Part shown: positions 28,818 through 41,176 of the stretch, in pieces | Layout of the letters: every line of letters begins with the position of its first letter | Position numbering within the stretch: position 1 is the first letter of the stretch | Source: Luteimonas wenzhouensis | Lineage (GTDB): Bacteria > Pseudomonadota > Gammaproteobacteria > Xanthomonadales > Xanthomonadaceae | Reading direction: 5' to 3' | Length of the DNA: 64,000 nt | NCBI RefSeq assembly: GCF_007859305.1 | Contig: NZ_VOHE01000004.1 | Span: 1-64,000 of the forward strand | The notes under the pieces: model-generated | What the model was told of the DNA's origin: nothing | Databases searched by the model: none | Seen by the model: the letters and a program-made list of their open reading frames with translations, nothing else | Program-made: the position numbers and the translations under genes

Positions 28818-29834
28818 ATGCTCTTCCAGCACGTCGCCATCGCCGGCCTGGCCCACATCGACGCTCCCCGCCGGCTGTCCTCGGCGGAGATCAATGCGCG
28901 GCTCAAGCCGACCCTCGACCGCCTCGGGATCAAGGCCGACGTGCTCGGCGACATCGCGGGCATCCACTCGCGCTACCTGTGGGAGGACAATGTCCAGGCC
29001 TCCGATGTCGCCACCCTGGCGGGGGTGAAGGCGCTGGCCGATGCCGGCATCGATCCGGACAAGGTCGGCCTGCTGGTCAACACCTCGGTCAGCCGCGACT
29101 ACCTCGAGCCGTCCACCGCGAGCATCGTCTCCGGCAACCTCGGCCTGCCCGAGACCTGCCAGAACTTCGACGTCGCCAACGCCTGCCTGGCCTTCATCAA
29201 CGGCATGGACATCGCCAGCCGCATGATCGAGCGCGGCGAGATCGACTACGCCCTGATCGTCGACGGCGAGACCGCGAACCTGGCCTACGAGAAGACCCTC
29301 GAGCGCCTGACCCGCGAGGACGCCACCGAGGAACAGTTCCGTAACGAACTGGCCACCCTCACCCTCGGCTCCGGCGCCGCGGCCATGGTGCTGGCCCGGG
29401 CCGAACTGGCGCCGGGCGCGCCGCGCTACAAGGGTGGCGTCACCCGCGCGGCCACCGAGTGGAACAAGCTCTGCCGCGGCAACCTCGACGGCATGATCAC
29501 CGACACCCGCACCCTGCTGCTGGAAGGCATCAAGCTGGCGCAGAAGACTTTCGCCGCGGCCCGCCAGGCGCTGGGCTGGGCGGTCGAGGAACTCGACCAG
29601 TACGTGATCCACCAGGTGAGCAAGGTCCACACCGCGGCCTTCACCAAGGCCATCGGCATCGACCCGAAGAAGGTCATGACCATCTTCGGCGAGCACGGCA
29701 ACATCGGCCCGGCCTCGGTGCCGATCGTGCTCTCGAAGCTGCGCGAGATGGGCCGCCTGAAGAAGGGCGACCGCGTGGCGCTGCTGGGCATCGGCTCGGG
29801 CCTGAACTGCTCGATGGCCGAAGTGGTCTGGTAA
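28818..29834 (+). CDS. oleA: OleA, thiolase-fold fatty acyl-CoA condensing enzyme
   Basis: A 338-residue enzyme that condenses two fatty acyl-CoA molecules to a 2-alkyl-3-ketoacid, the first step of long-chain olefin synthesis. The nucleophile is Cys123 in FDVANACLAFINGMDIA, with the OleA-specific Glu97 in SRDYLEPSTASIVSGN. The remaining catalytic residues lie in VIHQVS and GEHGNIGPASVPIVL. Length and sequence closely match Xanthomonas OleA. Its partners oleB, oleC and oleD are 10.4 kb downstream rather than adjacent. Confidence 0.95.
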   Translation: MLFQHVAIAGLAHIDAPRRLSSAEINARLKPTLDRLGIKADVLGDIAGIHSRYLWEDNVQASDVATLAGVKALADAGIDPDKVGLLVNTSVSRDYLEPSTASIVSGNLGLPETCQNFDVANACLAFINGMDIASRMIERGEIDYALIVDGETANLAYEKTLERLTREDATEEQFRNELATLTLGSGAAAMVLARAELAPGAPRYKGGVTRAATEWNKLCRGNLDGMITDTRTLLLEGIKLAQKTFAAARQALGWAVEELDQYVIHQVSKVHTAAFTKAIGIDPKKVMTIFGEHGNIGPASVPIVLSKLREMGRLKKGDRVALLGIGSGLNCSMAEVVW

Positions 29835-29856
29835 CGCGCGCCGCCGGGCGGTGAAG

Positions 29857-29881
29857 CGAGGGCCGGCCCGTCCGGCCCTCG
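29857..29881 (+). terminator. Hairpin terminator candidate after oleA
   Basis: A perfect 10-base stem, CGAGGGCCGG and CCGGCCCTCG, with a CCCGT loop begins 23 bases after the oleA stop. It is followed by TCGTCG rather than a T run, so termination may be weak or Rho-assisted. Confidence 0.6.
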
Positions 29882-29905
29882 TCGTGTCCGGTGTCCGGGC
29901 GCGGG

Positions 29906-29980
29906 ACATGTATCAGGATCCGGGGACGATTGAACATGTCGGCCCGGACATGTACAAGAAATCCAATTCTCTATACATGT
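29906..29980. promoter_or_regulatory. Four ACATGT boxes upstream of fic
   Basis: The palindrome ACATGT occurs at 29906, 29934, 29948 and 29975, spaced 28, 14 and 27 bases apart. The last is 16 bases before the fic start. The surroundings fall to clearly lower GC than the flanks (AAGAAATCCAATTC lies between boxes three and four). This looks like an operator array. The Fic protein's own C-terminal winged helix is a possible ligand, but this is inference. Confidence 0.5.
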
Positions 29981-29990
29981 AGAGCGTGCA

Positions 29991-31063
29991 ATGTCCCTGC
30001 CATCCCTGCACGCGCTGGACCCTGCACGCTTCGAGACCGTTGCCATCCTGAAGCGGCTGGCGGCCGCCAGCCGGGCCCTTGCCGAGCTCAAGGGCGTGGC
30101 GGCCACCATTCCCAACCAGGGATCCTGGTCAGCACCCTCACGCTGCAGGAGGCGAGGGACAGTTCCGCGATCGAGAACATCGTCACCACCCAGGACGACC
30201 TGTACCGCGACGAGGATCCGGCCGACGCCGTGGGCACCGCGGTCAAGGAGGTCCTGCGCTACCGTCAGGCGCTGCGCGCCGGCTACAGCCGGGTCCGCGA
30301 GACCGGCCTGCTGACGCTCAACACGATCCTCGACGTCCAGCAGCAGCTCGAATGCAACCGCGCGGGCTTGCGCAGGTTGCCGGGCACGGCCCTGCGCGAC
30401 GCGGCAGGCAACCTGGTGTACGAGCCGCCGCCCGACGCCAACGAGGTGCGCCGGCTGATGGGGGACCTGGAACGCTTCATCCACGACGATCCGCCGTTCC
30501 CCGCCGACCCGCTGGTGAAGATGGCGCTGGTCCACCACCAGTTCGAGAGCATCCATCCCTTTTACGACGGCAACGGGCGCACCGGCCGCATCGTCAACGT
30601 GCTTTACCTGGTGAAGGAAGGGCTGCTCGACATCCCGGTGCTCTACCTCAGCCGCCACATCGTGCGCACCAAGCCGGACTACTACCGCCTGCTGCATGCG
30701 GTGCGCGAGGCGGATGCGTGGGAAGACTGGGTGCTGTACATGCTCGACGCCGTGGCCGCCACCGCGTCCGAGACCGTGGCCACCGTCCAGGCCATCCGCC
30801 GGCTGCTCCAGGACACCAAGCAGCGCATCCGCGCCAACTACAGGTTCTACAGCCAGGACCTCATCAACAACCTGTTCAACCACCCCTACACCCGGGTCGA
30901 GTTCGCGCAGCGCGAACTCGGCGTGTCGCGCATCACCGCCACGCGCTACCTCGATGCGCTGGCGGCCGATGGCGTGCTGGAGAAGATCCGGGTGGGTCGC
31001 AACAACTACTACATCAACCGGCCGTTGTTCGCGCTGTTGAGCGCGGGAGCGTCACCACCGTGA
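29991..31063 (+). pseudogene. Fic-family protein, frameshifted
   Basis: A fic gene split over two frames. The first runs from ATG 29991 (LHALDPARFETVAILKRLA, VAATIPNQ) to about 30120. The second continues from 30122 with ILVSTLTLQEARDSSAIEN to 31063. One base is missing after CAGG at 30119-30122; restoring it gives 357 residues. Fic enzymes transfer AMP to target proteins. The catalytic motif HPFYDGNGRTGR is intact, and SSAIEN fits the inhibitory S/TxxxE(G/N) motif of the class with an N-terminal inhibitory helix. The C-terminus is a winged helix (FAQRELGVSRITATRYLDAL). Its stop overlaps the next start (GTGA), so the two genes form one unit. A consensus error could explain the frameshift. Confidence 0.82.
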
Positions 31064-34000
31064 GCGAAGCCCACCACCACGACGCCGACGGGTTCATCGC
31101 CAAGTGGCAGGGCGTGCCCGCCAGCGAGCTGTCCACGTCGCAGAGCTTCCTGATCGAACTGTGCGAGCTGTTGGGGGGTGCCGCGCCCGCATCCAACGCC
31201 CGAGCAGGACTACATGTTCGAGCGTCCGGTCACCTTCGTGCACGGCGACGGCGGCACCAGCGTCGGCCGCATCGACCTGTACCGCCGCGGCGCCTTCGTG
31301 CTCGAGTCCAAGAAGCTGCGCCAGGGCACCGGCCACAAGGGCTTCGACGACGCCCTGCTGCGCGCGCGCAGCCAGGCCGAGGCCTACGCCCGTGCGCTGC
31401 CCGCCAGCGAGGGGCGCCCACCGTTCCTGGTGGTGGTGGACGTGGGCCGCCGCATCGAGCTGTATTCGGAGTTCAGCCGTTCCGGCGGCACCTACGTCCC
31501 GTTCCCGGACCCGAGCAGCCACCGCATCGCGCTGCAGGACCTGCGCAGGGACGAGATCCGCGAGCGCCTGCGCCGGGTCTGGCTCGACCCGATGTCGCTG
31601 GACCCCAGCCGCGAGTCCGCGCGCGTCACCCGGGACATCGCCCACCGCCTCGCCCGGCTGGCACGCAGCCTGGAACAGGCCGGCCACGCGCCGGAACAGG
31701 TGGCCCAGTTCCTGATGCGCTGCCTGTTCACCATGTTCGCCGAGGACGTCCACCTGCTGCCGGACAACGCCTTCCGCGAACTGCTGCACAGGTACCGCGA
31801 ACAGCCCGACGTGGCCATGCGCATACTCGCCCAGCTGTGGCGCGACATGGACGCCGGCGGCTTCTCGGCCGTGCTGGCCCACGACGTGCTGCGGTTCAAC
31901 GGCAAGCTGTTCAAGAGCCCGGACACCCTGCCCCTGGACGGCGACCAGATCGACCTGCTGGTCGAGGCCGCGAAGGCCGACTGGCGCCATGTCGAACCGG
32001 CCATCTTCGGCACCCTGCTGGAACGCGCGCTGGACGCGAAGGAGCGCCACAAGCTCGGCGCCCACTACACCCCGCGCGCCTACGTCGAGCGCCTGGTGCT
32101 GCCCACGGTGATCGAGCCGCTGCGGCAGGAATGGGGCCTGGCGCAGGCCGCCGCGGGCACGCTGGCGGGCGAGGGCAAGGCCGACGAGGCGGTGCAGGAA
32201 CTGCTGCGCTTCCACCATCGCCTGTGCAGCGTGCGCGTGCTGGACCCGGCCTGCGGCTCCGGCAACTTCCTGTACGTGACCCTGGAGCACCTCAAGCGCC
32301 TGGAGGGCGAGGTGCTCAATGCGCTGGACGAGCTCGGCTACCGCCAGGCCGGGCTGGCGCTGGGCGGGGACCGCGCCGACGCCCTGGGCGGCGAGACGGT
32401 GGACCCGCACAACCTGCTGGGCATCGAGCTGAACCCGCGTGCTGCGGCCATCGCCGAGGTGGTGCTGTGGATCGGCTACCTGCAGTGGCACTTCCGCACC
32501 CGCGGCGACGTGAACCCGCCGCAGCCTGTGGTGCGCGACTTCCGCAACATCGAGTGCCGCGACGCGGTGCTGGCCTACGACGGGGTCGAGCTGGTCACCG
32601 ACGAACACGGCCGCCCGGTCACGCGCTGGGACGGCGAGACCATGAAACCCTCGCCCGTCACCGGCGAGCCGGTGCCCGACGAGACCGCGTGCAAGCCGGT
32701 GGAGCGTTACGTCAACCCGCGCAAGGCGGCCTGGCCGAAGGCGGACTTCGTGGTGGGCAACCCGCCGTTCATCGGCAACAAGCGCATGCGCCTTGCGCTG
32801 GGTGACGGCTACGTGGAAGCCCTGCGCAGCGCATGGCCGGAAGTACCGGAAACCTCGGATTTTGTCATGTACTGGTGGCACTACGCCGCGCAGCTGACCC
32901 GGCAGGGTGCGCTGGAACGGTTCGGATTCATCACGACCAACTCGATCCGGCAGACGTTCAATCAGCGGGTTGTTCAGCCTCATCTTTCAGACAAAAAGGG
33001 GGCACTATTCTTGGCGTTTGCGATTCCCGATCACCCGTGGGTGGATGGATCGGATGGTGCCGCAGTACGCATTGCCATGACGGTCGCGACGAGGGAGGTG
33101 GCTACTGGGATTCTCCAGACCGTGGTCATGGAAGACGCGATGGAACATGGTGAGTTCAGTATCCAGCTTGCGACTCAACGTGGACAGATCCAGTCAAATC
33201 TTCGGGTCGGAGCAAACATCAACAGCGCACGCCCGCTCATTGCAAATAGGGGCATCTGCTTCCAGGGTGTGAAGCTCGTCGGCAGTGGCTTCCGTCTGGA
33301 TGAAGCCACATATATGGCACAGGATAAGGAGGATCGCCCTGTTCTCAGAGAATACTGGACCGGTCGCGATGTCACAGCACGCCGCGTTCCGGAGTGGGTG
33401 ATCGACTTTTTCGGAATGGAAGAAGACGAGGCGAGAAAACAACACCCACGCCTTTACCAGAAGCTCGTTCACGATGTGAAGCCGTTCCGCGATCAGGTTG
33501 CACGCGCCAGTCACCGGGAGCGGTGGTGGGTGTTCGGCGAGCCGCGCCCGGGGCTCCGCAAGGCCCTTAAAGGACTGAACCGCTACCTGGCAACCTCTGA
33601 GGTGTCCAAGTTCAGGACATTCGTTTTCCTGCCTTGGCCGGATACGTTGCCTGACGGATCATTGATGGCTATCGCCATCGAAGATGCTTTCTTTGCTGGC
33701 GTTCTATCCAGTGTGGTGCACATAACCTGGACGTTAGCAACCAGCGGAACCCTAGAGAATCGCCCTCGATACAACAATACACAGTGCTTTAGTAACTTTC
33801 CTTTTCCCGACATTGAGACTGTTGAAGGCGCGGACATCCGGCGTTTGGTCGAGGAACTAGACGCCCACCGCAAGCGCCAGCAGGCCGCGCATCCCGGCCT
33901 GACTCTGACCGGGATGTACAACGTGCTGGAGAAGCTGCGCGCGGGCGAGCCGCTGAGCGCGAAGGAGCGCGCCATCCACGAGCAGGGACTGGTGTCGGTG

Positions 34001-34564
34001 CTGCGCCAGCTGCACGACGACCTCGACGCCGCCGTGCTCGAAGCCTATGGGTGGTCCGACCTGCTGCCGCTGCTGCGCGTGGCGCATGGCAACGAGTCGC
34101 CGGCCGAAGGCCAAAGCCGGGAGGATGCGAAGCGCGCGTTCGAGGAGGCGGTGCTGGATCGGCTGGTCGCGCTCAACGCCGAGCGCGCCGCCGAGGAGGC
34201 GCGCGGCATCGTGCGCTGGCTGCGCCCGGAGTTCCAGAATCCCGCGGGCGGTGGCCAGGCGCCGGAGCAGCCCGCCCTGGGCGGCGTGGAGCACGACGGG
34301 GGCGACGCGGCGGAGGAGGCCATCGTCGCAGCAGTGGCGGTGCAGGCCGGCAACAAGCCGAAGCCCTGGCCCAGGGATGCGGTGGAGCAGGTGCGCGCGG
34401 TGGCCGAGGTGCTGGCCGGCAGCGCGCATCCGCTGTCGGTGGACGACGTGGCGGCCCGCTTCACCGCACGCGGCCCATGGAAGCGGCGCCTGCCGCAGTT
34501 GCTCGACATGCTCGTGGCACTGGGCCGCGCGCGCGAGCAGGACGGCCGCTACGAACCGGCATGA
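31060..34564 (+). pseudogene. MmeI-like type IIL restriction-modification enzyme, frameshifted
   Basis: A single-chain restriction-methylation enzyme of about 1167 residues once one base is removed. The N-terminal frame from GTG 31060 (GFIAKWQGVPASEL, FLIELCELLG) breaks in a six-G run at 31173-31178; the body runs unbroken from there to 34564. The nuclease site is Asp72-x9-Glu82-x-Lys84 (RIDLYRRGAFVLESKK), the spacing known from MmeI. The adenine methyltransferase has DPACGSGNF (about 395) and NPPF (about 567), with AIFGTLLERALDAKERHKLGAHYTP before them. The target-recognition part (about 597-930) is coded by DNA of about 50% GC. The body could be expressed from GTG 31178 without the first 39 residues. 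The G run suggests phase variation, decay or sequencing error. Confidence 0.85.
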
Positions 34565-34600
34565 CCGCGCGGCCGCGCCGCGCGGCAGTCCGCTTCCCGG

Positions 34601-35332
34601 CTACTGCGCCCCGCAGCACTTCTTGTATTTCTTCCCGCTGCCGCAGGGGCACGGGTCGTTGCGGCCCGGGCCGTCGTCGCGGCGCAACGGGGTGCGCGGG
34701 GTGAGCGCCTCGACCCGGTGGCGGTTGAGGTCGGCCAGCATGCCGGGGACGCTCATGATGATTTCCAGCCGCTCGCGGTAGGTCACCGGCGCGGCCGGGG
34801 CGGTGGGGTCGGCCGGGTCGATGACCTCGCCGCTGGCGAGCCGGTCGAGCAGGTCGAGCGCCTCGCCGATCCAGTCGTGCCCGTCCAGCCAGCGGTCCCA
34901 GGCCTCCTCGCGCAGGGCCACGCCCTCGAAGAAGCCCAGCGCCCAGTCGTGGCCGACGTCGAGTTCGTCCTCGTGCAGCGCGTCCTCGCCCTCGAGTTCG
35001 GGATCCTCCGGCAGCCACATCAGCGGCGCGAGGTGCTCGGGCAGGTCGTCGCCCTCGAAGCGCGCGCGCGCGGCGCACATCGCCAGGTGCGCGTCGAGCA
35101 GGCCGTGGACCTCGCGGCGTTCGGCCTCGCTGTCCCAGCGCGGCTCCTTGCCGCCCCAGACCACCGGCCTCCATTCGTCCGCCGGGATGTCTTCGGGCGA
35201 AACCGCCAGGGCGGAGAGGAAGCCGTCGAGCGCTTCGAGGTTGAAGCCGCGGAACGGGACCGCGCGCCGGTCGAGCAGGTCGGACAGGCGTTCGATCTGG
35301 CCGTCGTCGAGGCCGGGAGGTGCAGCGGTCAT
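34601..35332 (-). CDS. UPF0149/YecA-like protein with SEC-C motif
   Basis: A 243-residue cytosolic protein. The N-terminal part ([28 protein letters not shown]) matches the UPF0149/YecA family. The acidic middle has [14 protein letters not shown]. The C-terminus ends with the zinc-binding SEC-C motif [19 protein letters not shown], found also in SecA. A role in ribosome or Sec-linked processes has been proposed for YecA relatives, but none is established for this one. ATG 35332 is preferred; ATG 35362 is in frame and adds ten residues. It is convergent with the restriction gene. Confidence 0.88.
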
Positions 35333-35428
35333 GGGCGAAGGCTCGTGCGTTGAAACGTGCATGGTAGCCGCCCGCGGCGGCCTCCCGCCGGGAGACGCCA
35401 CCGCAGGCCCCGCGCCCCCGCGGTGCTC

Positions 35429-36166
35429 CTACAGGATCCAGCCGCCGTCGACGGTCAGTTCGGCGCCGGTGACGAAGCTCGCGTCCGGGCCCGCGAGGTA
35501 GGCCACCGCGGCGGCGATGTCCTCCGGCTTGCCGATGCGCTTGAGCGGCGTGGCCTCGACGCCGGCCTTGAGCGCCTCGGGATCGACGCCGCCGAGCATC
35601 GGCGTCTCGATGTAACCCGGGTGCACCGAGTTGACGCGGATGTGGTCGGGCGCGAACTCGACCGCGGCGGTCTTGGTCATGCCGCGCACCGCCCACTTGG
35701 TGCCGACGTAGGCGCCGGACCCGGCGAGCCCGAGCTGCCCGGCGATGGAGCTGATGTTGACGATGCTGCCGCCGCCGGCCGCGCGCATCGGCGCCAGCGC
35801 GTGGCGCATGCCCAGGAACGTGCCGAACTGGTTGACCCGGAACTGGCGCTCGACGCCGGCGAGGTCGGCCTCTTCGATGGTCCCGGCCTCGTAGATGCCG
35901 GCGTTGTTGACCAGGACGTCGAGCCGGCCGAAGGCCGCGAGCGTGGCCTCGACCACGGCCCGCCAGGCGCCGTCGTCGGTGACGTCGTGGGCGAAGAAGC
36001 GGGCGCGCTCGCCAAGCTGCGCCGCCAGCGCCTGGCCGTCGGCCTCGAGCACGTCGGTAATGGCGACGTGCGCGCCGTCGGCATGCAGCCTGCGCACGAT
36101 GGCCGCGCCGATGCCGCGCGCGCCGCCGGTGACCAGGGCGGTCCTGCCTGCCAGTGGAGTCCCCAT
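35429..36166 (-). CDS. SDR-family oxidoreductase
   Basis: A 245-residue classical SDR. Cofactor motif TALVTGGARGIGAAIVRRL, acidic NAD-preferring end of strand 2 (AITDVLEADG), VLVNNAGIYEAG, catalytic Ser in IVNISSIAGQLGLAGSGA and Tyr/Lys in YVGTKWAVRG, then the late motif VHPGYIETPML. It resembles glucose 1-dehydrogenase and hydroxysteroid dehydrogenase-type SDRs. The substrate is unknown. The ATG at 36166 gives a normal N-terminus; upstream in-frame sequence is low-complexity and probably non-coding. Confidence 0.9.
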   Translation of the reverse strand: MGTPLAGRTALVTGGARGIGAAIVRRLHADGAHVAITDVLEADGQALAAQLGERARFFAHDVTDDGAWRAVVEATLAAFGRLDVLVNNAGIYEAGTIEEADLAGVERQFRVNQFGTFLGMRHALAPMRAAGGGSIVNISSIAGQLGLAGSGAYVGTKWAVRGMTKTAAVEFAPDHIRVNSVHPGYIETPMLGGVDPEALKAGVEATPLKRIGKPEDIAAAVAYLAGPDASFVTGAELTVDGGWIL

Positions 36167-36272
36167 GTGCGGCTCCCGTCGATGTGTCCGGCTGCCATGC
36201 TGGCCGGTGGCGGCCGCGGGCGCATTGATCGGGGTCAACGCGGCGGCGGCCGGGACCGCCGCTGGCGTCGCG

Positions 36273-37065
36273 TCAGGCGGGCGTCGGCACCGCTTGCGCG
36301 GGCTGGCCGCTGCGTTCGAAGGCGACTTCACGCAGCGCGCCGCCGACCAGGATCACCCCGGGCAGGCCCGGCGCGACCCCTGCCGCCGCGCCGGCGAGGC
36401 GGCCGAGCGTGGTCAGCGTGCGCCGTTCGCCCGCCTGGGTCGCCGCCTGCACGATCGCGGCCGGGGTGCGCGCGGGCAGGTGGCACAGCAGCGCGCGCGA
36501 GCGCGTCGATCCTGCGCACGCCCATGTAGATCGCGAGCGTGGTGCCGGTGGCGCAGAGCGCGGCCCAGTCCGGTTCGCCATGGTCGGCGGTGTGGGCGGT
36601 GACGAAGGTGACGCCGTGGCAGTGTTCGCGATGGGTGAGCGACACGCCGAGCGACGCGGCGGCGGCGAACGCGGCGCTGACGCCGTTGACGATGCGCACA
36701 GGCACGCCGGCGGCGCGCAGGAACGCGATCTCTTCGCCGGCGCGCCCGAACAGCAGCGCGTCGCCGCCCTTCACCCGCACCACGCGCAGCCCCTGCCGCG
36801 CGTAGCGGCGCATCAGCCGGCAGATGAAGTCCTGCGGCGTGGAGCGGCAGCCGCCGCGCTTGCCCACGCGCAGCACGCGCGCGCCCGGCGCGAGTTCGAC
36901 GATCGCCGGGTCGACCAGTTCGTCGAGCAGCAGCACGTCCGCCGCCTGCAGGTCGCGCACCGCGCGCAGGGTCAGCAGCTCCAGGTCGCCGGGGCCGGCG
37001 GACAGGAGCACGACTTCGGCCGGGATCGGGCGCGGCAGGTGCGGATCGTTGCTGGCGGGGTCCAT
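36273..37065 (-). pseudogene. cobA: Uroporphyrinogen-III C-methyltransferase CobA, frameshifted
   Basis: The enzyme makes precorrin-2 for siroheme, needed by nitrite and sulfite reductase. The first part, from ATG 37065, has VVLLSAGPGDLELLTLRAVR, VRVKGGDALLFGRAGEE and VRIVNGVSAAFAAAASLGV, all typical SAM-methyltransferase motifs. At about 36489-36499 the frame breaks in a GC-repeat tract. The rest (PAAIVQAATQAGERRTLTTLG, then GVILVGGALREV) continues in another frame to 36273. The tract looks two bases (one GC) shorter than expected. It follows the nasA remnant in the same direction, as in nasA-cobA operons, so this looks like decay of nitrate assimilation. A consensus error is the alternative. 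Confidence 0.82.
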
Positions 37066-37090
37066 GGCGGTCTCCGGTGGCGGGGCGGGG

Positions 37091-37711
37091 TCATGCGCGG
37101 ACGGGTTCGGCGACCAGGCGCAGCAGCTGGGGGGTGCAGGAGCCGCAGACCGTGCCGCAGCCAAGGCGCGTGCGCAGCGCGGCGAGGTCGGCGCCGTCGC
37201 GCACCGCGGCGCGGATCTGGGACTCGCTGACCTGGCGGCAGACGCAGACCATCGGGTCGCGCACGGCCGCGGCCGCGGACGAGAACGCGGCCAGGCGCGG
37301 GCCGGTCCAGGGGCGGTCGGCAAGGGCGGCCTGCAGCAGGGCATCGCCGCCGGGTCGCGCGTCGGCCCACAGCACGCCTTCGATCCGCGAGCCGCCGTCG
37401 TCTTCGCGCCAGGCCACGCGCCGCAGCAGGCCGCGGCGCGCGTCGCGGTACTCGAGCGTGTCCGGTCCGGTGTCGAGGTCCAACGCATCCTCCAGCCGCT
37501 GCATCCACGCCGCGGGCATCGGCTCCGCGGCCGCCGCGCGCAGCACCATCCAGGCTTGGTCGTCGCCGGTACTCTCGGCGCAGGGATGCAGTGCCAGCCC
37601 CGCATAGCCGCAGTCGCGCAGCAGTGGCTGCAGCGCGGCGTGCAGTGCCAGCGCATCGCCGCGGCGCGCGGCCAGCAGGTGCCAGCCGAACGTCGCCTTC
37701 TCCACCCGCAC
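37091..37711 (-). pseudogene. nasA: C-terminal remnant of assimilatory nitrate reductase NasA
   Basis: The frame encodes only the last 206 residues or so. The end PMVCVCRQVSESQIRAAV followed by LGCGTVCGSC is the BFD-like [2Fe-2S] domain carried at the C-terminus of many NasA proteins. Before it, EYRDARRGLLRRVAW and GVLWADARPGG also fit the NasA C-terminal region. The large molybdopterin-binding part, usually several hundred residues, is absent: an in-frame stop lies just upstream and the bphP gene begins 145 bases away, with a GTAG repeat at the break. The remnant might still be translated from GTG 37711, but it could not reduce nitrate. Confidence 0.75.
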
Positions 37712-37745
37712 CGCCGCGTGTCCTCCCCGGCATCACCACCCGCCC

Positions 37746-37769
37746 GTAGGAGCGGCTTCAGCCGCGACC
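37746..37769 (+). repeat. GTAG-headed REP element (SMAG-like)
   Basis: GTAGGAGCGGCTTCAGCCGC followed by GACC. The inner part folds as GCGGCT/AGCCGC. The GTAG head and length fit the SMAG/REP class of Stenotrophomonas and relatives. It lies at the 5' break of the nasA remnant. Two more copies are at 48362 and 48533. Confidence 0.8.
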
Positions 37770-37855
37770 GGGCCGCTGCAAACCCCCGTCTTCCCGCGCA
37801 ATCTCCCTCGTCACGCAGCGCGGTCCACGCACGGATCCCCGCACGCGCGACCCAC

Positions 37856-39574
37856 TCATTCCGCGACCGCGTCCCCTGACGTGATCAGCTGGCGCAGTTC
37901 CTCTTCCAGGCGGGCAATGCGCTCGGCCAGCGCGCTCGCGGTGCCCGGATCGACGTGCACCAGGCTGTCGAGCAGTTCCGACAGCCGCAGCAGGCGCTCG
38001 CGGTGCCCGCGCACGTCGAGCGGGTTGCGGCGGCCGCGCAGTTCGCGCGCCTCCGCCTGCCCGCCGCCGCGCTGGTGGAACTCGCGCAGCGCCAGGCCCA
38101 GGCGCGAGGCGATGCGCAGGTCGGCGTCGCTCCACGGCGCGCTGGTGCCGCGCACGGTCTCGGTCCAGGCCTCGAAGCTGCGGCGCGGCCCGAGGCGCTG
38201 GCCGTCGTCGCCGAGCTCCATCGGCTGGTCGGGGCGCCCGGCCCAGCGCACCTCCTCGACCTGTTCGCGGCGGAAGAACAGCAGCCATTCGTCGCGCGCC
38301 GGATCGAGCGGCAACGCCAGCACGCCGGCGACGCCGCCGGCGGCCTCGCGGCCAGGGCTCCAGTCGTCGCAGCGGTCGGTGGCCACGGGCGCGCCGGGCG
38401 TGGCCGCGCGCCACAGCCAGGCGAGCAGGTCGGGCATGCGCTCCGGCGGCGGGCAACGGCCGGCCGCGTGCCAATGGCCGGACTGCAGCAGCACCACGCC
38501 GTCGGCCGGGACTGCGCGCTGCAGCAGTTCCAGCTCGGCCGGCAGCGCCAAGCGCGGATCGCTGGCGGCGGACAGGCGCTGGGCGAGTGTGTCGCGCACA
38601 CCGCGCGCCTCCTCCTCGAGCCGCGCCGCCTCCTGCTGTTCGCGCGCGGCCACGCGCATCGAGACGAACAGGCCGAACAGGTCGGCCGCGGCGCGGATGC
38701 CCGCGGGCACCGGCCGCGGCGTGCGGTGGTGGCAGGCGATCAGGCCCCACAGCCGGCCGCCGGCGACGATCGAGATCGACATCGACGCGGCCACGCCCAT
38801 GTTCGCCAGGTACTCCAGGTGCACCGGCGAGACGCTGCGCAGCGAGAGCTGACTCAGGTCAAGCGGACCGCCGCCGGGATTGCGGTCGGGCAGGATCGGC
38901 ACCGGGCGGTAGCGCGCGTCGGGAATCACCCGGATCCGGCTGTGCAGGTACAGCCGGCGCGCCTGCGGCGGGATGTCCGAGGCCGGGTAGCGCAGGCCGA
39001 GGTAGGGGGGCATGTCCGGTTCGCGCGATTCGGCCACCACCTCGCCCGAGTCGTCGTGGCGGAAGCGGTACACCATCACCCGGTCGTAGCCGGTGAGCTT
39101 GCGCACCTGCTCGGCCACGCGCTCGTGGAAGCCCGCCTCGTCGAGGCCCTGGGCGATGCGCGCGATCATCGCCTGCGCCACCAGCGTGGGCGAACGGTCG
39201 CCGGCGCCGTGCACGTGCGGCTCGATCTCGATGTGGACCAGGCCTTCGGCGGCATGCACGCTGACCTCGCACAGCTTCGCCGACGGGCCGATGTTCGCCA
39301 CCGCCGCGCGCTGGGCCGGCGCGCCGGGATCGCTGAAGCCGATGGTCTCGGCGATTGCCTGGATCACGTCGTCGGTGATGAACTCGCGCAGCGAGCGGCG
39401 CAGCATCGCCTCCGGCGCCGCGCCGGTGAGTTCCTCGACGTTGGCCGAGACGTTGGTGATGGTCCAGTCCGGCAGCCGGGAGCTGACCAGGTAGCCATGC
39501 GGCTGGATCGCGCCGGACAGGTGGATCGGCTCGCTGGCGCAGGCCTGCAGGGCGCGTTCGAGTTCCGGGGTCAT
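37856..39574 (-). CDS. bphP: Bacteriophytochrome photosensory module without output domain
   Basis: A 572-residue biliverdin-binding photoreceptor with PAS, GAF and PHY domains. The chromophore Cys is at residue 12 (LQACASEPIHLSGAIQPHG). The GAF domain has YPASDIPPQARRLY and the ACHHR segment, and the PHY domain has the tongue motif PRRSFEAW. After PHY only about 90 residues remain, mainly charged helix (SALAERIARLEEELRQL), with no kinase, GGDEF or PAS output. It could signal through a partner protein. The start overlaps the bphO stop (ATGA), and the frame is intact to its own stop. The short C-terminus may be natural or a truncation. Confidence 0.9.
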   Translation of the reverse strand: MTPELERALQACASEPIHLSGAIQPHGYLVSSRLPDWTITNVSANVEELTGAAPEAMLRRSLREFITDDVIQAIAETIGFSDPGAPAQRAAVANIGPSAKLCEVSVHAAEGLVHIEIEPHVHGAGDRSPTLVAQAMIARIAQGLDEAGFHERVAEQVRKLTGYDRVMVYRFRHDDSGEVVAESREPDMPPYLGLRYPASDIPPQARRLYLHSRIRVIPDARYRPVPILPDRNPGGGPLDLSQLSLRSVSPVHLEYLANMGVAASMSISIVAGGRLWGLIACHHRTPRPVPAGIRAAADLFGLFVSMRVAAREQQEAARLEEEARGVRDTLAQRLSAASDPRLALPAELELLQRAVPADGVVLLQSGHWHAAGRCPPPERMPDLLAWLWRAATPGAPVATDRCDDWSPGREAAGGVAGVLALPLDPARDEWLLFFRREQVEEVRWAGRPDQPMELGDDGQRLGPRRSFEAWTETVRGTSAPWSDADLRIASRLGLALREFHQRGGGQAEARELRGRRNPLDVRGHRERLLRLSELLDSLVHVDPGTASALAERIARLEEELRQLITSGDAVAE

Positions 39575-40047
39575 CGGCAGTCCTCTGGCAATGGCATGGG
39601 GATGCGGTCGAAGCTGCGCTCGAAGCAGGTGTACACGAGAGTGAAGGCATCGCGCGCGCCGGCCACCGCCCCGGCGCCGCGCGCCTCGTCGTCCGCGCCG
39701 TGTCCGCGCAGCTGCGCGAGCACGGCGTTCCAGTCCTCGCCTTCGGCGTGGCGGGCGAGGAAGTCGCCGCCCCGGCCCGGTCCGAAGCCGAGCCGGCGCG
39801 CGTCGCGCAGCAGCCTGCGCGCGCCGAGGCTGCTGCCGGCCATCACGTAGTGCCAGCCCAGCCGCGCGGCATGCCCGGCGACGGGGACGCAGCGTCCTTC
39901 CGCCGGCAGCGGCGGCAGCGACAGCGCGGCGAGGTCGCCGGCCAGCCACGCCGACCGGCGCGGCAGCGCGCCGGTGGCGCATTCATAGTCGACGGCGAAG
40001 CGGTGCATGCCGAGCAGGTAGCGGCGGTAGGCATCGACCGTGTCCAA
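39571..40047 (-). CDS. bphO: Heme oxygenase BphO, 5' end unresolved
   Basis: This enzyme opens heme to biliverdin, the chromophore of the overlapping bphP. The frame from TTG 40047 encodes DTVDAYRRYLLGMHRFAVDYE, AGHAARLGWHYVMAGSSLGARRL and DAFTLVYTCFERSF, matching BphO. The true N-terminus lies further upstream in the same frame: HLRAATADLHARVDALF, with the probable heme-ligand His at 40078-40080. No ATG, GTG or TTG precedes it in frame. GTG 40133 would fit if one GC unit were removed from the run at about 40108-40118. Either a two-base expansion, a consensus error or a rare start codon is involved. Confidence 0.72.
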   Translation of the reverse strand: MDTVDAYRRYLLGMHRFAVDYECATGALPRRSAWLAGDLAALSLPPLPAEGRCVPVAGHAARLGWHYVMAGSSLGARRLLRDARRLGFGPGRGGDFLARHAEGEDWNAVLAQLRGHGADDEARGAGAVAGARDAFTLVYTCFERSFDRIPMPLPEDCR

Positions 40048-40273
40048 CCCGCGCGGGAACAGCGCATCGACGCGCGCGTGAAGGTCGGCCGTGGCGGCGC
40101 GCAGGTGCGCGCGCAGGCACGGCGCTGCGTCACCGTCCCGGGGCGGTTGGCGGATGCTGGAAGCGTTCCCGTCGATGCGCCCTAGGGTACAGGTTCCCCG
40201 GCGCGGCAGGCGGCGGCCGGGTTCAGCCTGGTGAGCCGGCTACAATGCGCACCCCGTTCCCGCGTACGCGCCC

Positions 40274-41176
40274 GTGTCCTTCCCCGACTACGACTTCGCC
40301 AGCCACCGTTTCGAAGTGCGGCCGGGGATCCGGATGCACTACCTGGACGAGGGTCCGCGCGACGGCGAGGTGGTGCTGGCGCTGCACGGCAATCCCTCGT
40401 GGAGCTATTACTGGCGGCACCTGGTGCGCGGGCTGCGCGACCGCTACCGGGTGGTGGTGCCCGACCACGTCGGCATGGGCCTGTCGGACAAGCCCGACGA
40501 CGACCGCGACGCGCTGCCGCGCTACGACTACACCCTGCAGTCGCGGGTGGACGACCTGCAGGCGCTGCTCGAGCACCTGGGCATCGACGGCCCGCTGACC
40601 CTGGCGGTGCACGACTGGGGCGGGATGATCGGCTTCGGCTGGGCGCTCGAACGCATGCCGCGGGTACGGCGCCTGGTGGTGCTCAACACCGCCGCGTTCC
40701 CGATGCCGGCCGGCAAGCCCATGCCCTGGCAGATCGCGCTGGGCCGCGACTACAACATCGGCGAACTGGTGATCCGCGGCTTCAACGCATTCTCGGCGGG
40801 CGCCTCGTGGCTGGGCGTGGAGCGGCGCATGCCGCGCGAGGTGCGCCGCGCCTACGTCGCGCCCTACGACAGCTGGGCCAACCGCATCGCCACCGTGCGC
40901 TTCATGCAGGACATCCCGCTGCGCCCGGGCGACCGCGCCTGGCCGCTGGTGGAGGCCTCGGGCCAGCGCCTGCGCGAGTACGCCGACCGCCCCGCCTTCA
41001 TCGGCTGGGGGCTGAAGGACTTCGTGTTCGACCGCGATTTCCTCGCCCGTTTCCGGAGCGACTGGCCGCAGGCCGAGGTGCACGCCTTCGAGGACGCCGG
41101 CCACTACGTGCTCGAGGACCGGCACGAGGTGCTGGTGCCGGCAATCCGCGGCTTCCTCGACCGCCACCCGCTCTGA
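40274..41176 (+). CDS. oleB: OleB, beta-lactone decarboxylase (alpha/beta hydrolase)
   Basis: A 300-residue enzyme of the haloalkane-dehalogenase-like branch. It decarboxylates the beta-lactone made by OleC to the cis-olefin. The nucleophilic Asp is in TLAVHDWGGMIGFGWAL, the catalytic His in FEDAGHYVLEDRHEV, and LHGNPSWSYYWRHLV forms the oxyanion region. RFEVRPGIRMHYLDEG is a typical N-terminus. The start is GTG at 40274. Unlike some actinobacteria, OleB is not fused to OleC here. Confidence 0.9.
   Translation: MSFPDYDFASHRFEVRPGIRMHYLDEGPRDGEVVLALHGNPSWSYYWRHLVRGLRDRYRVVVPDHVGMGLSDKPDDDRDALPRYDYTLQSRVDDLQALLEHLGIDGPLTLAVHDWGGMIGFGWALERMPRVRRLVVLNTAAFPMPAGKPMPWQIALGRDYNIGELVIRGFNAFSAGASWLGVERRMPREVRRAYVAPYDSWANRIATVRFMQDIPLRPGDRAWPLVEASGQRLREYADRPAFIGWGLKDFVFDRDFLARFRSDWPQAEVHAFEDAGHYVLEDRHEVLVPAIRGFLDRHPL

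What the first reader, a model, noticed from the sequence alone, without database searches (positions are those of the whole stretch)
29991..34564. Overlapping Fic and MmeI-like type IIL restriction-modification genes as one unit
The fic stop and the RM start overlap in GTGA at 31060-31063, so both would be translated together. The Fic part has HPFYDGNGRTGR and an SxxxEN inhibitory motif. The RM part has Asp72-x9-Glu82-x-Lys84, DPACGSGNF and NPPF. A Fic AMP-transferase with a winged helix tied to a self-methylating nuclease could be a guard or regulator of the RM enzyme. I know of no described system of this form, although I cannot search.
Basis: partly seen in the sequence, partly recalled or inferred. 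Interest (0 to 1): 0.7.

Follow-up and report, generated by a model that had tools for sequence, protein, structure and literature searches.

The report
Broken SoFic–restriction operon in defence hotspot
A protein-modifying toxin gene (SoFic) overlaps a DNA-cutting and methylating enzyme gene; both are broken in this genome, but the pair is one example of a widespread habit in which SoFic, which probably switches its own promoter, leads an operon whose restriction gene is often swapped.

Summary
The GTGA overlap and all named motifs are real, but both genes are frameshifted here: fic lost one base (shared with a near-identical strain) and the RM gene gained one G (the sister strain has other lesions). 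The Fic is SoFic, a known class II anti-phage AMP-transferase; the RM enzyme is MmeI-like (type IIL). Their pairing is not private. Of 123 SoFic loci examined, about 40 are followed directly by an RM gene or remnant (type III Mod, HsdR, HsdM, HsdS, IIG, ISP or MmeI-like); 19 overlap by 1 or 4 bases. Nearly identical Fics carry different RM types, so the RM part is swapped. The MmeI pairing itself was seen only in Lysobacteraceae, in a hotspot between oleA and oleB. Intact Fics persist beside five RM remnants, against the RM enzyme being Fic's antitoxin. New: SoFic promoters carry inverted repeats whose sequence follows the Fic clade even at one genomic site, and whose change goes with recognition-helix changes. 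SoFic therefore probably represses its own promoter and, by read-through, the RM gene. Fic/Doc toxins in RM operons were described in 2013; SoFic DNA binding was undemonstrated as of 2023.

The parts
28818..29834 (+). oleA (3-oxoacyl-ACP-synthase-III-like first enzyme of olefin synthesis); left border of the insertion hotspot
   Evidence: ORF; the same gene lies next to 60 of 94 Lysobacteraceae SoFic loci and in 116 of 119 family genomes. The name oleA rests on sequence recall plus the oleA/oleB/ligase gene order, not on a family search.
29906..29980 (+). Predicted SoFic operator/promoter: four ACATGT (29906, 29934, 29948, 29975); inverted repeats TTGAACATGTC 29930-29940 / GACATGTACAA 29947-29957 and CATGTACAAGAA 29949-29960 / TCTCTATACATG 29968-29979
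   Evidence: (p 0.033); no full consensus promoter found by the scan
29991..31063 (+). fic (SoFic, class II Fic AMP-transferase), broken by a 1-base loss at 30119-30121; N part 29991-30119, main part 30119-31063
   Evidence: intact copies exist in L043, L131
30161..30178 (+). SSAIEN, class II inhibitory motif (S/T)xxxE(G/N)
30554..30589 (+). HPFYDGNGRTGR, Fic catalytic motif
30803..31027 (+). SoFic-like_C winged-helix domain, predicted DNA-binding part
   Evidence: PF21248, residues 229-303 of the main frame; winged helix in the S. oneidensis structure (PMC2686095)
31060..31063 (+). GTGA overlap of fic stop and RM start
   Evidence: kept in L043, L134; ATGA in L132
31060..34564 (+). MmeI-like type IIL restriction-modification gene, broken by a 1-base gain in G6 31173-31178; main frame 31178-34564
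   Evidence: intact copy in L131
31274..31312 (+). D-x9-E-x-K nuclease motif
   Evidence: sequence
32243..32269 (+). DPACGSGNF, methyltransferase motif I
   Evidence: sequence
32759..32770 (+). NPPF, methyltransferase motif IV
   Evidence: sequence
33011..33910 (+). Target-recognition region, 43-59% identical to the sister strain against 97-100% over most of the rest: exchanged specificity domain
   Evidence: MmeI_TRD Pfam match residues 711-879
40274..41176 (+). oleB (alpha/beta hydrolase), right border of the hotspot; about 5.6 kb of other genes lie between the RM gene and it

Best explanation
The locus is a decayed two-gene defence operon sitting in the oleA-oleB insertion hotspot of Lysobacteraceae. 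In intact relatives the first gene makes SoFic, a self-inhibited AMP-transferase dimer whose C-terminal winged helix probably binds inverted repeats lying on its own promoter and keeps expression low. The second gene, here an MmeI-like nuclease-methyltransferase, has no room for a promoter of its own and is read from the same transcript by stop-start coupling, so SoFic autoregulation sets its level too. The RM part cuts unmodified phage DNA; SoFic AMPylates host proteins and aborts infection as a second, separate line, with an unknown trigger. The RM slot is exchangeable; SoFic also works, and is kept, without it. Shown here: gene order, overlaps, RM swapping, lesions, operator-clade match, decay with Fic intact. 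Inferred: autorepression, co-transcription, division of labour. From literature: SoFic toxicity and anti-phage activity, MmeI chemistry.
For: 19 of 40 SoFic/RM junctions overlap by 1 or 4 bases, 30 of 40 lie within -20..+30. Almost identical Fics L088 and L092 precede a type IIG gene and an hsdM gene; MmeI-like genes or remnants follow Fics of four clades; RM label changes at least 34 times on the tree. Upstream inverted repeats significant in 57/123 SoFic promoters against 1/124 control windows and in 13/17 plasmid SoFics from four phyla. At the same oleA site operator type follows Fic clade: TCGACATGA 6/6, CGAACATGA 13/13, CAAGGAAA twice in 14/21, CATGTATANAAA 12/17, with near-empty off-diagonals for double hits. 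Between the first two subclades fixed differences concentrate in the recognition helix (5 of 11 columns against 35 of 387, p 0.002). Promoter-like hexamers in 31/62 upstream regions against 11 +/- 3 in shuffles, several with the -10 inside an operator half-site. CccR, a related Fic with C-terminal HTH, represses its own promoter (PMC9755527).
Against: No DNA binding or expression was measured; SoFic DNA binding had not been shown as of 2023 (PMC10628234). Many SoFics have no RM gene (13 of 17 sampled on plasmids), so RM control is at most an optional consequence. Fic genes inside hsd operons (e.g. L158, L165, L078) lack upstream repeats. The window promoter itself has no full sigma-70 consensus. 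Type IIL enzymes protect themselves, so a C-protein-like delay is not obviously needed. Some inverted repeats counted may be oleA terminators (e.g. L176, L189).
Confidence: 0.6

Rival explanations
1. Plain hotspot neighbours: SoFic and RM genes are separate defence genes collected in the oleA-oleB hotspot and in defence islands; the overlap is ordinary operon packing without functional dependence, and SoFic regulates only itself.
For: oleA-oleB holds many other inserts (7 SoFic, 8 empty, 15 other among 30 loci); about two thirds of SoFic loci lack an RM gene downstream; RM without Fic is the rule for the MmeI-like family.
Against: Tight overlaps recur with unrelated RM types and separate Fic lineages, also outside the hotspot and outside the family; the order Fic-then-RM on one strand predominates.
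Confidence: 0.25
2. Guard system like PrrC-PrrI: the RM protein keeps Fic inactive, and Fic kills the cell when a phage inhibitor disables the RM enzyme.
For: Adjacency and overlap; PrrC precedent with hsd genes (PMC3710099); SoFic is toxic when expressed alone in E. coli (PMC12249575).
Against: Five loci keep intact Fic with RM decayed or deleted to a remnant (L173, L087, L181, L182, L217), which should be lethal; many SoFics stand alone; one Fic lineage pairs with unrelated RM proteins that share no obvious surface; in E. coli the antitoxin is a 47-residue protein, AS1.
Confidence: 0.1
3. Fic AMPylates the RM enzyme and so tunes it, as the first reader also suggested.
For: Only co-localisation.
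Against: RM partners are unrelated proteins (HsdR, Mod, HsdS, MmeI), so a shared substrate is unlikely.
Confidence: 0.03
4. The frameshifts are assembly errors and the window operon is intact.
For: The RM lesion is one extra G in a G run seen in one assembly only.
Against: The fic lesion is shared base for base with independently assembled Luteimonas sp. J29, whose RM gene is broken elsewhere; large neighbouring genes such as oleA and the M16 peptidase are open.
Confidence: 0.07

Closest known systems
SoFic (class II Fic; PDB 3EQX, 3ZCN, 9VJC), single-gene anti-phage AMP-transferase
   Same: Domain set, catalytic and inhibitory motifs, PADLOC SoFic model
   Different: Here broken; tied by overlap to an RM gene in place of the small antitoxin gene AS1 reported downstream of E. 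coli Sofic (PMC12249575)
MmeI, type IIL restriction-modification enzyme (PDB 5HR4)
   Same: N-terminal D-x9-E-x-K nuclease, helical spacer, N6-adenine methyltransferase, TRD
   Different: Only low sequence similarity in two stretches; frameshifted; preceded by fic
DOC/Fic or RhuM toxins in R-M operons with PrrC/RloC (PMC3710099)
   Same: Fic-type toxin encoded with R-M genes, proposed multi-level defence
   Different: Those are described beside HEPN proteins; here SoFic with winged helix, no HEPN partner seen, RM types swapped behind it, operators
CccR of Yersinia pseudotuberculosis (PMC9755527) and CbFic2 (PMC10628234)
   Same: Fic plus C-terminal HTH; CccR represses its own promoter through palindromes
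   Different: Reported as secreted/effector proteins; not tied to RM genes
Controller (C) proteins of RM systems (PMC12707154) and upstream immune-operon regulators such as CapK/CapS (PMC13373217)
   Same: Autoregulating DNA-binding protein encoded first in a defence operon
   Different: C proteins are small HTH regulators without enzyme activity; SoFic is also a toxin

Membership tests
SoFic (class II Fic) | HPFx(D/E)GN(G/K)R catalytic motif | tested here: met
   HPFYDGNGRTGR
SoFic (class II Fic) | N-terminal inhibitory (S/T)xxxE(G/N) | tested here: met
   SSAIEN; both motifs in 120 of 123 SoFics
SoFic (class II Fic) | Fic_N, Fic and SoFic-like_C domains / SoFic model | tested here: met
   PADLOC SoFic 355 bits
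SoFic (class II Fic) | NCBIfam equivalog cut-off (550 bits) | tested here: inconclusive
   328.8 bits, but the query lacked the N-terminal part because of the frameshift
SoFic (class II Fic) | Intact reading frame | tested here: not met
   1-base loss at 30119-30121; intact in L043 and L131
SoFic (class II Fic) | Anti-phage AMPylation | not testable with these tools
   needs experiment
MmeI-like type IIL | MmeI_N, MmeI_hel, MmeI_Mtase, MmeI_TRD in one chain | tested here: met
   all above gathering score in the main frame
MmeI-like type IIL | D-x9-E-x-K nuclease motif, DPACGSG, NPP(F/Y) | tested here: met
   31274-31312, 32243-32269, 32759-32770
MmeI-like type IIL | Intact single polypeptide | tested here: not met
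   1-base gain at 31173-31178; intact in L131
MmeI-like type IIL | One-strand adenine methylation and cleavage | not testable with these tools
   needs methylome and digestion
PrrC-PrrI-type guard | Toxin cannot be kept without the RM partner | tested here: not met
   intact Fic with RM remnants in L173, L087, L181, L182, L217
C-protein-type control (works like, not member) | Operator repeats on the promoter of the first gene | tested here: met
   (by sequence only)
C-protein-type control (works like, not member) | Small stand-alone HTH regulator | tested here: not met
   the first gene codes for a ~360-residue Fic enzyme
C-protein-type control (works like, not member) | Measured control of RM expression | not testable with these tools
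   needs reporter assay

The most novel reading that the evidence does not exclude
SoFic is a dual-role gene: an abortive-infection toxin that is also the self-repressing controller of whatever restriction-modification gene is plugged in behind it, with operator and recognition helix co-evolving by clade. If so, release of SoFic from its operator would raise toxin and RM enzyme together.
Probability: 0.35. Interest if true: 0.75.

Novelty: new variant of a known kind. Interest (0 to 1): 0.5.

Why it matters
It turns a curiosity seen in one broken locus into a general, testable rule: SoFic leads operons with exchangeable RM genes, and its untested winged helix has a predicted cognate DNA site in each clade. 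That gives a direct handle on two open points, what the SoFic C-terminal domain does and how SoFic toxicity is held back where no AS1-like gene fits, and it bears on defence annotation, which lists SoFic and RM genes as separate systems. The oleA-oleB hotspot is also a place to look for new defence genes in Lysobacteraceae.

Tried and rejected
RM-specific coupling: rejected because MmeI-like loci outside Lysobacteraceae lack Fic. Guard by RM as antitoxin: disfavoured by intact Fic beside RM remnants. Phase variation as cause of the frameshifts: unlikely, runs are G3 and G6 only and the fic lesion is fixed in two strains. Sequencing error for fic: rejected by the shared lesion. Searches for papers joining Fic with MmeI, with type I restriction plus AMPylation, or with oleA/oleB gave nothing on this arrangement; only an open-licence library was searched. 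tRNA near the site: none in the window. Consensus promoter and terminator scan of 29800-31300: none. The start codon chosen for some downstream genes is a heuristic, so gap values for non-RM neighbours were not used as a control.

Full report
What is there. The Fic is SoFic by PADLOC (355 bits), by Pfam (Fic_N, Fic, SoFic-like_C) and by its solved relatives. The RM protein has MmeI_N, MmeI_hel, MmeI_Mtase and MmeI_TRD and matches MmeI 5HR4 alone in the PDB. Both genes are broken: one base lost in fic at 30119-30121, one gained in the RM gene at 31173-31178.

The lesions are informative. Luteimonas sp. J29 (L009/L134), about 99% identical in fic, shares the fic lesion exactly, while its RM gene has different lesions (2-bp loss near 31360, 31-bp loss near 34108). 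So fic was lost first and the RM gene twice afterwards. Losing translation through fic may have cost the coupled RM gene its expression; that is inference. The two RM genes are 97-100% identical over most of their length but 43-59% identical over 33011-33910, the target-recognition region: specificity was exchanged, as known for this enzyme family.

Is the pair conserved? Among 68 related RM loci from the genome collection, three had Fic directly upstream: J29, KLAP37 (L043, same GTGA overlap, intact fic) and a Lysobacteraceae MAG (L062/L132, a Fic only 34% identical, ATGA overlap). A family survey added G115 (L131; both genes intact, 161-base gap), and remnants of MmeI-like genes follow Fic in L181 and L217. 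In a phylum sample none of 21 further genomes with strong MmeI-like matches had Fic upstream. So the MmeI pairing was seen only in Lysobacteraceae, with Fics of four clades.

The general rule. I examined 123 SoFic loci, 94 from Lysobacteraceae and 29 from other Gammaproteobacteria. Directly downstream, about 40 have an RM gene or remnant: type III Mod, HsdR, HsdM, HsdS, a type IIG enzyme, an ISP enzyme or an MmeI-like enzyme. Nineteen of these junctions overlap by 1 or 4 bases and 30 lie within -20 to +30. Nine of the 29 loci outside the family are of this kind. Annotated plasmids show the same in other groups: hsdM-fic-hsdS-fic-hsdR in Azotobacter, fic-methyltransferase-helicase in Komagataeibacter, methyltransferase-helicase-fic in Pontibacter, hsdM-fic with hsdS nearby in Croceicoccus; 13 of 17 plasmid SoFics, however, have no RM neighbour. 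The window genome itself holds a second, intact SoFic between hsdM and hsdS (L095). On the Fic tree the RM class changes at least 34 times, and the near-identical Fics L088 and L092 are followed by a type IIG gene and an hsdM gene: the RM part is swapped behind a constant Fic.

The site. In 61 of 94 Lysobacteraceae loci SoFic lies next to oleA and/or oleB, and the window gene does too. Of 30 oleA loci, 7 are followed by SoFic, 8 directly by oleB and 15 by something else. This is an insertion hotspot with SoFic as a frequent occupant. Co-residence here explains much of the Fic-MmeI adjacency. The names oleA and oleB rest on recall and gene order.

Mechanism. Five loci keep an intact Fic, with both motifs, in front of an RM remnant (L173, L087, L181, L182, L217). 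If the RM protein were Fic's antitoxin this should kill the cell, so the guard model is weak. Instead the promoters point to autoregulation. Inverted repeats upstream of SoFic are significant in 57 of 123 loci against 1 of 124 control windows inside fic and in 13 of 17 plasmid SoFics. At one and the same genomic site, after oleA, the half-site depends on the Fic clade: TCGACATGA in 6 of 6, CGAACATGA in 13 of 13, at least two CAAGGAAA in 14 of 21, CATGTATANAAA in 12 of 17. Between the first two subclades fixed differences concentrate in the recognition helix of the winged-helix domain (5 of 11 columns against 35 of 387, p 0.002). Promoter-like hexamers occur in 31 of 62 such regions against 11 +/- 3 in shuffles, several with the -10 inside a half-site. 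In the window the repeats are at 29930-29957 and 29949-29979. A related Fic with HTH, CccR, represses its own promoter (PMC9755527), but DNA binding by SoFic had not been shown as of 2023 (PMC10628234). I therefore infer that SoFic represses its own promoter and, by co-transcription and stop-start coupling, sets the level of the RM gene behind it.

What is known already. SoFic as an anti-phage AMP-transferase with a small antitoxin AS1 in E. coli (PMC12249575); a suggestion that HTH domains fused to Fic regulate fic (PMC2686095); DOC/Fic toxins in R-M operons as multi-level defence (PMC3710099); C proteins and CapK/CapS as upstream regulators. I found no paper on SoFic with MmeI-like enzymes, on RM swapping behind SoFic, on SoFic operators or on the ole hotspot; only an open-licence library was searched.

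Limits. Loci were drawn by similarity, with heavy sampling of one family; neighbour classes rest on a few Pfam-labelled representatives plus similarity; many loci had only 1.5-3 kb of flank; the shuffles for inverted repeats number 60 per locus; no function was measured.

Noticed in passing
window 28818-41176: oleA-oleB gap is an insertion hotspot in Lysobacteraceae; 15 of 30 oleA loci carry inserts other than SoFic, not identified here.
   Followed up: partly
L095 (G000:C15:328985-330079): The same genome has a second, intact SoFic between hsdM and hsdS of a type I RM operon.
   Followed up: partly
window 33011-33910: Target-recognition region of the RM gene differs from the sister strain while the flanks are nearly identical: specificity exchange.
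   Followed up: yes
L184:1010-2926: Behind a SoFic, with 4-base overlap, a SLFN/AlbA_2 protein with a weak Fic-like_C domain match, followed by a methyltransferase-like gene.
   Followed up: no
L233: Azotobacter plasmid type I RM operon holds two Fic genes (hsdM-fic-hsdS-fic-hsdR).
   Followed up: no
L133 (G215:C77): SoFic of another clade divergent from an MmeI-like gene that is split into two open frames; similar split genes occur in other genomes.
   Followed up: no
L276:3550-3714: A 165-base ORF overlaps the fic stop between Fic and hsdS in Croceicoccus; its size recalls the AS1 antitoxin.
   Followed up: no
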